From Acidobacteriota bacterium (GTDB lineage Bacteria > Acidobacteriota > Terriglobia > Terriglobales > Acidobacteriaceae), in assembly GCA_003225075.1 (NCBI GenBank), contig QIAP01000074.1:1-64000 (forward strand): 64,000 bases of DNA. Reading direction: 5' to 3'. A program made the translations under genes and the position numbers. Below the pieces are notes generated by a model, which searched no databases, had not been told where the DNA came from, and saw only the letters and a program-made list of their open reading frames with translations. Shown piece by piece: positions 2 through 10,752 of the stretch; the stretch's first letter is position 1, and the number at the start of each line of letters is the position of its first letter.

Positions 2-574
2 CAACAACTCAGCTTCTTCAACGGTGGTTATGGCCAGCACATGTATCACCCCATGCTGATCTTCGAGCGTCACACCGGATGTCTGCTGGCCGCACGCTTG
101 CGACCGGGAAATGCCTCCAGTCATGCTCGCATCGTGCCCATGCTGCTGCGCTTGGTACCGCGTTTGCAGTCTGCTTTCCCCGCCGTAAAGATCAAACTGC
201 GCGGCGATGCCGGTTTTGCTCTGCCCCTGCTCTACCAGTTCTGCGAGTTCTTCGCTATCGAGTATGTCCTCGACATCCCCGCCAACTGCGTCTTCAAGCG
301 TCGCGCCCAACCACGGCAGAAGCAGTTGCAACGGCGCTATCGCCGCACCCAATTACCCCAGCGCAGCTTTTCCAGCTTCCGCCATCGCCCCCGCAGTTGG
401 CCGCGCCAGCCCCGCATCTGTTACAAGGCCGAACATACCGTCGCCGCAACCAACCTGCGCTTCCTGATCACCAACTGCGACCGCCCTGCCTCTCAGGTCT
501 TCGCTTTCTACAACGATCGCGGAGAGTGCGAGAATCGCTCACTCAAACCACGAGAGTCACCTTTGGCGGAGTGA
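2..574 (+). pseudogene. IS1380-type transposase, truncated at both ends
   Basis: The frame is open from the window edge (first full codon at base 2), so the 5' part lies outside. The translation resembles IS1380-family DDE transposases: a stretch after 'FFNGGYGQH', a central 'LRGDAGFALPLLYQFCE' block holding the catalytic aspartate, 'YVLDIPAN', and a late 'FYNDRGECENR' block. In intact members the last motif continues into an 'IKELK'-like segment. Here similarity stops at about base 540 and the frame runs into unrelated sequence, ending at 574. The C-terminal catalytic part is therefore missing and the element is probably dead. No right terminal inverted repeat was recognised. Confidence 0.72.
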
Positions 575-2596: not shown

Positions 2597-2905
2597 ATGC
2601 ACGTGAGCAATGCAGCAAGTGAATGGAGAATCTACCGCACACGATTTCTGATTAGCGCCAGGCAACTGACCGAATCATTCTCTTTGGTGGATGCACTCGG
2701 TCGCGAGCATCACGGTGAGCCAGGGGATTACCTGGTGGAGTCCTCCGATGGTGCGCAGCGGATTGCCCCGCGCGAAATCTTTGAAGACATCTACGTGCCC
2801 ATCGGCGCGGCTGGTGAAAACTGGCCCGTGCCGGATAAGCGAGCTCTGCCATTGGAACCGGCGGCTGCCCGTCGCACGGCCTCGCGGCGCGCCATTATGG
2901 TCTAA
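2597..2905 (+). CDS. Small PGDYG-like protein
   Basis: This 102-residue protein has a central 'PGDYLVESSDG...I....FEDIYVP' pattern, which resembles the small PGDYG-type domain ('PGD[YW]xV...DG...I....F...Y.P') found in uncharacterised bacterial and phage proteins. No signal peptide or membrane segment is seen. The ATG at 2597 has AAGGG four bases upstream, so the start is plausible. Function is unknown. Just downstream lies the nrdJ promoter region; the gene is probably not part of that transcript. Confidence 0.6.
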   Translation: MHVSNAASEWRIYRTRFLISARQLTESFSLVDALGREHHGEPGDYLVESSDGAQRIAPREIFEDIYVPIGAAGENWPVPDKRALPLEPAAARRTASRRAIMV

Positions 2906-2974: not shown

Positions 2975-3026
2975 ATACAATATATAGCGATACCCTCTTG
3001 ACAGGTACTATATACAGGCGTACTGT
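2975..3026 (+). promoter_or_regulatory. Two NrdR-type boxes on a sigma-70 promoter
   Basis: A good sigma-70 promoter is visible: TTGACA (2998-3003), a 17-base spacer, and TACTGT (3021-3026). Two copies of a NrdR-box-like sequence overlap it. Box 1 (2975-2990, ATACAATATATAGCGA) matches the consensus ACACWATATATWGTGT at 13 of 16 positions. Box 2 (3005-3020) matches at 10 of 16 and lies between -35 and -10. Their equivalent bases are 30 bp apart, the helical spacing usual for tandem NrdR boxes. NrdR is the ATP/dATP-sensing repressor of ribonucleotide reductase genes, and nrdJ follows downstream, so the assignment fits its context. The match is by eye. Confidence 0.65.
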
Positions 3027-3032
3027 AGCGAT

Positions 3033-3282
3033 CCCATAAGGTGATGCAGGCCCCCGAAATCGGCAATGGAAGAGTTCGGCGGCTAAGAAAAAACTGGGGC
3101 GGACGCGTCGGTTGAGGTGACCCCGCACCGCCCCGTCAACTGGTTCCGTTCCCCGTAAGTGAACGGAACCGCAGCAGGCCTGTCCGGCATGCTGCGGGTT
3201 GGAGCGCGTGGCTTGCGGTGGCTGTTCCCCCGGTTCGGCGTCAGCCGAATATCCCCTCGGGGGATTGACTTGGCATCATTTT
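3033..3282 (+). ncRNA. Predicted structured leader RNA upstream of nrdJ
   Basis: From the expected start site near 3033 the transcript can close on itself. Bases 3038-3047 pair with 3273-3282 (10 pairs, two G-U) and 3051-3057 (CCCCCGA) pair with 3257-3263. Inside are hairpins 3096-3102/3128-3134, 3142-3151/3161-3170 (10 perfect pairs), 3171-3176/3190-3195 and 3234-3239/3244-3249. CCCCCG at 3227-3232 competes with 3051-3056 for the same partner, giving two mutually exclusive folds. I could not match it to 6S, tmRNA, SRP, RNase P or the cobalamin riboswitch. It could be a cis-regulatory leader of the nrdJ operon or an independent RNA. Confidence 0.45.
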
Positions 3283-3421: not shown

Positions 3422-4075
3422 ATGGAAGGTTTAGCCCGCCTGGTTGCTGATTCCCTGGCACGACATGGTTTCGAGACGCCCTTAGATTACCGTCGCCTGC
3501 AATGGTCGCGCTGGTTTCGCTGTGAATCCAGCTTTAGCTTCCTTTTAGTTCCCGGCGAATCCGGCCTGTTTGCCTTGGGCGAGGAAGTGGTGGCGCCGGG
3601 CGAGGTCCCTGCTACCGGCGGCAAACGCATGCTGGCCATATTTCAGATCGCCGAGGCCGCTGATCTCGGTATGGCAATGGCACGTCTTTTCGCTCCCAAC
3701 AGCCCGCTGCGTCAACGATTCGCCGAGGGGCGCTGCTTCGCCCGCTATGTGGTAATCGAAGATGATGTCCAGCGGCGCACGGCTCTCGCAGCCCTGCAGC
3801 AGTGGCTGGCATCGGCGGTTGAATCGGTATCAGGCATTCCGGCTGACTTCTTCCACCTAGGTGAGCCGTCACAAAGCACGTCCGTGGAGACGAAGCAGGT
3901 ACGAGACATTCGTGAGGAGACGACGCCAGTCGCATTGCCGCTGACTGAGCCGGAAAGCCGAGAGCTTTTTCCCGGAAAGAGACAGTCTGAAAACGTTTGT
4001 GAGAGAAGCAGACCAGCCGAAACCCCGCGGCGTGAAAAAATGGTGCAGCCGGCGCCATTACCGTCCGGTTTTTAG
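3422..4075 (+). CDS. Conserved hypothetical protein upstream of nrdJ
   Basis: The family was not recognised. From the ATG at 3422 the product is 217 residues. The first ~150 look like a globular alpha/beta domain ('LDYRRLQWSRWFRCE', 'GKRMLAIFQIAEAADLGMAMARLF', 'CFARYVVIEDD', 'ALQQWLAS'). The last ~60 are charged, Pro/Glu/Arg-rich and probably disordered. ATG 3422 is chosen because GAAGGGAG lies about seven bases upstream; the frame stays open to a TTG at 3281 but that part looks non-coding. No signal peptide or membrane helix. It sits between the NrdR-type promoter and nrdJ (59-base gap), so it is probably co-transcribed with the reductase. Confidence 0.7.
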   Translation: MEGLARLVADSLARHGFETPLDYRRLQWSRWFRCESSFSFLLVPGESGLFALGEEVVAPGEVPATGGKRMLAIFQIAEAADLGMAMARLFAPNSPLRQRFAEGRCFARYVVIEDDVQRRTALAALQQWLASAVESVSGIPADFFHLGEPSQSTSVETKQVRDIREETTPVALPLTEPESRELFPGKRQSENVCERSRPAETPRREKMVQPAPLPSGF

Positions 4076-4134: not shown

Positions 4135-7164
<3,030 letters not shown>

Positions 7165-10467: not shown

Positions 10468-10752
10468 GGTATACGGATTTCTACCGATTGACTCGGCTCT
10501 CGTGAAGGATTAATCTGGCTGTCGAGATGGGGTGAGGACGGTACAGGTTTTTGCCGTTTCCTCTGTTTCAGGCCGGCCGAAGGAGAACGGCAGCCAGGCT
10601 GGCCACGTCCCTCACCTCGTCAGCATCTTCTTTTCAAATCTTCAATCCTTCTCTGTTTCAAAAACTGACGACGCCTACCTGCCTCGCGCTAAACATGGTG
10701 CTCCGTCTACAATGGCCGGGCACGAATTTCAAATAGTAATCAGGAGACAAGC

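What the first reader, a model, noticed from the sequence alone, without database searches (positions are those of the whole stretch)
3033..3282. Undescribed structured leader with mutually exclusive helices before nrdJ
About 250 nt can close into a multibranched fold: a 10-bp outer stem, a 7-bp inner stem and at least four internal hairpins. CCCCCG occurs twice (3051 and 3227), and each copy can pair with 3257-3263, as in a switch. It directly follows the NrdR-type promoter and precedes a cobalamin-dependent enzyme, so a nucleotide- or cobalamin-related sensor is a reasonable guess. No B12 box was found. From memory an 'nrdJ RNA motif' has been proposed computationally; I could not test identity.
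Basis: partly seen in the sequence, partly recalled or inferred. Interest (0 to 1): 0.75.

Follow-up and report, generated by a model that had tools for sequence, protein, structure and literature searches.

The report
New conserved RNA leader before nrdJ
The messenger RNA for the B12-dependent enzyme that makes DNA building blocks in a group of soil acidobacteria begins with a conserved folded RNA that matches no catalogued RNA family, and it is probably a control element for that enzyme.

Summary
A covariance model built from 11 relatives hit 39 of 250 genomes of the family, once each; 28 of these were not used to build it. Every one of 47 distinct loci checked lies just upstream of the nrdJ operon. 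Two hairpins (P2, P3) show strong covariation: 121 cells changed on both sides, against 29 in shuffles. A third (P1) is supported in one clade. The unpaired elements GAGGUG, GCGGUG and a C-rich bulge are nearly invariant. G-U pairs outnumber A-C mismatches 115 to 26, so it acts as RNA from this strand. No Rfam family matches, including nrdJ (RF03034), cobalamin and NAD+-I, although the cobalamin and NAD+-I models find true members in this same genome. Motif-bearing genomes never carry a class I reductase (0/39 against 68/211). The RNA precedes a small uncharacterised ORF and then nrdJ, and survives where that ORF is absent. Best reading: a new nrdJ-specific cis-regulatory RNA, a riboswitch candidate. 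Its ligand and output mechanism are unknown.

The parts
2975..2990 (+). NrdR box 1 (ATACAATATATAGCGA)
   Evidence: read from sequence; the same promoter block is conserved in relatives
3005..3020 (+). NrdR box 2 (GTACTATATACAGGCG), between -35 and -10
   Evidence: read from sequence; conserved in relatives
2998..3026 (+). promoter: -35 TTGACA 2998-3003, 17-nt spacer, -10 TACTGT 3021-3026; start of transcription inferred near 3031-3034
   Evidence: sequence; -35/-10 block conserved across the homologous loci
3031..3037 (+). conserved 5' end AUCCCAU
   Evidence: TCCC invariant in 33 homologues
3049..3084 (+). hairpin P1 (5' hairpin; divergent in the window)
   Evidence: window fold; covariation of P1 in the clade of L054/L070 etc.
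3096..3134 (+). hairpin P2: GGGGCGG/CCGCCCC outer stem, loop presenting GAGGUGA (3114-3120)
   Evidence: R1/R2 hit 3096-3273; covariation
3141..3200 (+). variable hairpin region between P2 and P3, not conserved
   Evidence: alignments A3/A4
3215..3222 (+). conserved unpaired GCGGUGGC directly 5' of P3
   Evidence: GCGGUG 47 of 47
3223..3267 (+). hairpin P3 (3223-3231 with 3259-3267), enclosing P3b (3234-3239 with 3244-3249) and C-rich bulge (3250-3258)
   Evidence: covariation; folds as P3 in 44 of 47
3422..4075 (+). ORF217, uncharacterised protein, first gene after the leader
   Evidence: no Pfam or NCBIfam hit; present after the motif in 37 of 47 loci; weak GIY-YIG-like fold
4135..7164 (+). 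nrdJ, adenosylcobalamin-dependent class II ribonucleotide reductase
   Evidence: NCBIfam NF005122 1463.6 bits, TIGR02504; Pfam

Best explanation
A new family of structured 5' leader RNA that regulates, in cis and after transcription starts, the operon of the class II ribonucleotide reductase in part of one family of Terriglobia (Acidobacteriota). SHOWN by comparison: the RNA lies between the NrdR promoter and the nrdJ operon. It has two covarying hairpins (P2, P3) plus a 5' hairpin (P1) supported in one clade. Unpaired GAGGUG (P2 loop), GCGGUG (5' flank of P3) and a C-rich bulge or loop in P3 are nearly invariant. It occurs once per genome and only at nrdJ. INFERRED: the invariant unpaired bases form a folded core that binds a regulator, most likely a small molecule reporting on deoxynucleotide or cofactor supply (an adenine nucleotide/dATP or adenosylcobalamin). 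Binding then changes read-through or translation of the leader, a second control layer below NrdR. My estimates: conserved structured RNA 0.95; cis-regulator of nrdJ 0.85; small-molecule aptamer 0.45. The confidence given is for the statement as a whole.
For: R1, built from 11 sequences, hit 39 of 250 family genomes, one hit each, 28 of them not in the training set. All 47 distinct loci have ORF217 or nrdJ downstream, and in 10 no ORF217 is found so the motif precedes nrdJ directly. Covariation in A4: 23 of 25 pairs with a double change, 121 cells against 28.9 +/- 5.1 shuffled and 10-30 in slid controls. Excess persists in sequence-only alignments (30 against 13.3; 60 against 36.6). P1: 30 against 11.2. 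G-U 115 against A-C 26, p 1.5e-14, so selection acts on RNA of this strand. Loop GAGGUG 45-46 of 46, GCGGUG 47 of 47, two C of the bulge 47 of 47. 0 of 39 motif genomes have NrdB against 68 of 211 others, p 2e-6; by genus 1 shared against about 6 expected, p 0.004.
Against: No expression platform was recognised: terminator-like sites after the motif in 4 of 47, 2.5 expected, none in the window leader, and no coordinated pairing of the C-rich loop with the start region. No ligand evidence at all. The motif covers only part of one family; other class members keep NrdR boxes without it, so it is not essential for nrdJ. In this window P1 and the base of P3 are degenerate. Covariation on CM-fitted alignments is flattered. 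On the sequence-only P3 alignment, the slide of -1 gives 33 double-changed cells against 30 at zero, so the clearer measures there are percent paired (80.8 against 66.1) and covariation score (0.216 against 0.178).
Confidence: 0.6

Rival explanations
1. A protein-binding leader: NrdJ itself, the ORF217 protein or a ribosomal/RNA-binding protein binds the invariant loops and autoregulates the operon; no small molecule is sensed by the RNA.
For: Invariant short loop sequences on variable stems are also typical of protein sites. An uncharacterised ORF217 with a weak GIY-YIG-like model sits directly downstream in 37 of 47 loci.
Against: 10 of 47 loci keep the RNA without a detectable ORF217, so ORF217 cannot be the general partner. 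nrdJ orthologues of other families lack the RNA.
Confidence: 0.3
2. A ribosome-linked element: the P2 loop GAGGUGA is a perfect 7-nt match to the 16S anti-Shine-Dalgarno and acts as a standby or decoy site for 30S, with the C-rich loop of P3 as a competing anti-SD mimic.
For: GAGGUG in 45-46 of 46 homologues and the C-rich loop (CCUCCCC or UCCCC) are conserved; complementarity of GAGGUGA to the 16S 3' end is from general knowledge.
Against: No conserved start codon follows GAGGUGA. Loop-to-loop and loop-to-RBS pairing is no better than permuted pairs (256 of 300 and 180 of 300). It does not explain GCGGUG.
Confidence: 0.12
3. A member of the published Rfam nrdJ motif (RF03034) or a degenerate cobalamin riboswitch that curated models miss.
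For: Same gene context: RF03034 lies before nrdJ in Streptomyces lividans (PMC8079986).
Against: No RF03034 or cobalamin match in the window at E up to 5 or in 20 relatives at E up to 3; no RF03034 match in 80 family genomes (but its control also rang nowhere). RF00174 finds true members in 36 of 41 relatives including this genome, yet not here.
Confidence: 0.03
4. The mutually exclusive helix switch of the first reader (either C-run pairs with GGGGG) is the working mechanism.
For: In this window the whole-leader minimum-energy fold uses the local hairpin AUCCCC/GGGGAU rather than P3, and the C-rich segment before the G-run is conserved.
Against: No covariation for the local hairpin; 44 of 47 homologues fold as P3, none as the local hairpin; the first CCCCCG copy at 3051 falls in P1 and is not conserved.
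Confidence: 0.07

Closest known systems
nrdJ RNA motif (Rfam RF03034)
   Same: Computationally found structured RNA in the leader of nrdJ; presumed cis-regulator
   Different: 80-position model that does not match the window, 20 relatives or 80 family genomes; reported in Streptomyces, not Acidobacteriota
Cobalamin (AdoCbl) riboswitch RF00174
   Same: Controls reductase and B12 genes in bacteria; in some relatives a hit lies about 3 kb upstream of nrdB (G021, G017)
   Different: No RF00174 match here even at E up to 5, while one real member exists elsewhere in this genome (C73)
NAD+-I (nadA) riboswitch RF03013
   Same: Acidobacterial; bulged stem-loops with a C-rich bulge (ACANCCCC; here ACAUCCCC in several members) and unpaired GYG contacting it; binds the ADP moiety (PMC7297122)
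   Different: Bulge lies on the 3' strand rather than the 5' strand, the A is not conserved, the intervening helix is 9-10 bp rather than 7, no Rfam match; the true NAD+-I pair of this genome is on contig C128
NrdR-regulated nrd promoters
   Same: The leader is transcribed from a promoter with two NrdR boxes
   Different: NrdR is a DNA-level control; the RNA is an additional element absent from most NrdR-box nrdJ loci

Membership tests
Rfam nrdJ motif (RF03034) | match to the covariance model | tested here: not met
   no hit at E up to 5, E up to 3 in 20 relatives, none in 80 family genomes; no positive-control genome was available
Cobalamin riboswitch (RF00174) | match to the covariance model / B12 box | tested here: not met
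   no hit at E up to 5; the model works in the same genome
NAD+-I riboswitch (RF03013) | tandem bulged stem-loops with ACANCCCC bulge on the 5' strand, 7-bp P1a, GYG loop | tested here: not met
   no Rfam hit; bulge on the other strand and helix 9-10 bp (alignments A4, A6); true members found at C128
conserved structured RNA | covariation of stems across homologues beyond controls | tested here: met
conserved structured RNA | strand asymmetry (G-U kept, A-C not) | tested here: met
   115 against 26
cis-regulatory RNA | fixed position between promoter and one class of gene | tested here: met
   47 of 47 loci upstream of ORF217 and/or nrdJ; one hit per genome
riboswitch | ligand-dependent structure and expression change | not testable with these tools
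   needs probing and reporter assays
riboswitch | recognisable expression platform (terminator or RBS sequestration) | tested here: inconclusive
   no terminator excess; no coordinated loop-to-RBS pairing

The most novel reading that the evidence does not exclude
A new riboswitch class that senses a deoxynucleotide/adenine nucleotide or adenosylcobalamin and tunes the only detected aerobic ribonucleotide reductase of these bacteria, by a fold unrelated to known cobalamin and nucleotide riboswitches (possibly convergent with the C-bulge nucleotide pocket of NAD+-I).
Probability: 0.35. Interest if true: 0.85.

Novelty: new variant of a known kind. Interest (0 to 1): 0.6.

Why it matters
Direct RNA sensing by ribonucleotide reductase genes is known mainly through cobalamin riboswitches on class I genes and the orphan RF03034 motif. 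A second, unrelated RNA devoted to nrdJ, confined to genomes with no detected class I enzyme, gives a defined orphan candidate with few plausible ligands (dATP, ATP, other dNTPs, AdoCbl). It makes the question of whether dNTP supply is read by RNA directly testable.

Tried and rejected
Outer 10-bp stem as the closing helix: only in the window. CCCCCG alternative pairing: no covariation in two registers. First P1 register on mixed clades failed because two loop types shift the columns; it works within one clade. Loop-loop pseudoknot between P2 and the C-rich loop, and C-rich loop with RBS: no better than permuted pairs. Intrinsic terminator platform: no excess. NAD+-I membership: geometry and strand differ. 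Spread beyond the family: none in 247 phylum genomes or in nrdJ upstream regions of other families of the class. Literature search found no description of this leader, but the main paper behind the Rfam nrdJ motif is not in the library.

Full report
Setting. The window lies on contig C210 of a 4.79-Mb assembly. Related loci with names come from Terriglobia metagenome assemblies, many called Candidatus Sulfotelmatobacter or Acidobacteriaceae. The finding sits between a two-box NrdR promoter and a 217-aa ORF (3422-4072) followed by nrdJ (4135-7164; NCBIfam NF005122 and TIGR02504). So the leader is that of an ORF217-nrdJ operon and does not abut nrdJ.

All quoted strings and stems are in the sequence and the leader folds better than shuffles (z -2.5). 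The 10-bp outer stem is found in this copy only. The two CCCCCG copies can pair with the G-run, but that alternative has no evolutionary support.

What is conserved. DNA similarity to relatives is mostly limited to the promoter. Reading the homologous leaders by their downstream ORF showed a shared pattern. A model R1 from 11 leaders then found 39 of 250 genomes of the family, one hit each, 28 of them new, and none outside the family in 247 genomes spread over the phylum. Of 47 distinct hits, 37 precede ORF217 and 10 precede nrdJ with no ORF217 detected. The association is therefore with nrdJ.

Structure. P1: a 5' hairpin with a GAAA or CGGGAA loop. P2: a stem of about 12 bp with the loop GAGGUGA. 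P3: CGUUCCCCG/CGGGGAACG, directly preceded by GCGGUG(G/A)C, enclosing either a second hairpin P3b plus the bulge AUCCCCU or a 9-nt loop such as AUCCUCCCC. Covariation in A4: 23 of 25 pairs with double changes, 121 double-changed cells against 28.9 shuffled and 10-30 slid. Because A4 was fitted by the model, the hairpins were realigned by sequence alone; P3 and P2 still exceed controls on percent paired and covariation score, less strongly, and for P3 the double-change count alone does not beat the -1 slide. P1 is supported within one clade. G-U cells outnumber A-C cells 115 to 26, which a DNA palindrome would not show. The invariant unpaired bases on variable stems look like a recognition core.

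Known families. The window scanned against Rfam 15 gives nothing in the leader at gathering scores or at E up to 5, nor do 20 relatives at E up to 3. The published nrdJ motif is RF03034 (PMC8079986; also named in PMC8388888); it has no match in 80 family genomes, though no positive-control genome was available to me. Cobalamin and NAD+-I models detect real members in this very genome on other contigs, so the silence is not a general failure of detection. The C-rich bulge recalls the ACANCCCC pocket of NAD+-I, but on the opposite strand and with a different helix length; I treat this as a lead only.

Physiology. None of 39 motif genomes has the class I small subunit PF00268, against 68 of 211 other family genomes (p 2e-6; by genus p 0.004). 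Phylogeny is not fully controlled and the RNA search used strict filters, so the motif count is a lower bound. In relatives with class I genes, cobalamin riboswitch hits lie about 3 kb from nrdB. Carriers of the RNA thus appear to depend on NrdJ alone among aerobic enzymes (anaerobic NrdD was not tested).

Mechanism. Shown: conserved folded RNA, transcribed-strand selection, position, restriction to nrdJ. Inferred: binding of a regulator by the unpaired core and control of the operon. Not found: the output device. A small-molecule sensor is my first choice (0.45), a protein-binding leader second (0.3).

Limits. Nearly all sequences are from metagenome assemblies. The transcription start is inferred. 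There are no expression data. Covariation tests do not remove relatedness fully. The literature library is partial.

Noticed in passing
window 3422-4075: ORF217, a family-specific protein without Pfam/NCBIfam match, lies between leader and nrdJ in most relatives. The AlphaFold model (pLDDT 71) resembles the GIY-YIG domain of UvrC weakly (most Foldseek hits prob 0.6-0.94, E 0.1-0.5).
   Followed up: partly
L010 (G000 contig C171) and L007 (G001): The assembly holds a second nrdJ copy (84% identical over the first 200 aa) with the NrdR promoter but with most of the leader and ORF217 deleted; same arrangement in the congener G001. C171 is a 4.7-kb contig, so contamination is possible.
   Followed up: partly
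L036-L056 upstream of the promoter and about 25 nt after P3: DnaA-box-like TGTGGAAAA is conserved upstream of the NrdR promoter and again after P3 in one clade.
   Followed up: no
L036-L056, about 20-75 nt after P3: In one clade the tail UGUGGAAAA-GCCUCG-GAGGGC-UCGCA-GUCCCUUUCUUCG is conserved and offers two exclusive pairings of GAGGGC, a possible expression platform.
   Followed up: partly
window 41-571: Transposase DDE fragment (PF13701) near the start of the window, upstream of this nrdJ copy.
   Followed up: no
window 10535-10611: CyVA-1 RNA (RF02965) at 62.9 bits, above the gathering score.
   Followed up: no
G021:C68 and G017:C1: In relatives with class I reductase a cobalamin riboswitch hit lies about 3 kb upstream of nrdB on the same strand.
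   Followed up: no
window 2597-2905: A small conserved ORF (weak PGDYG match) lies upstream of the promoter in nearly all relatives with the motif.
   Followed up: no
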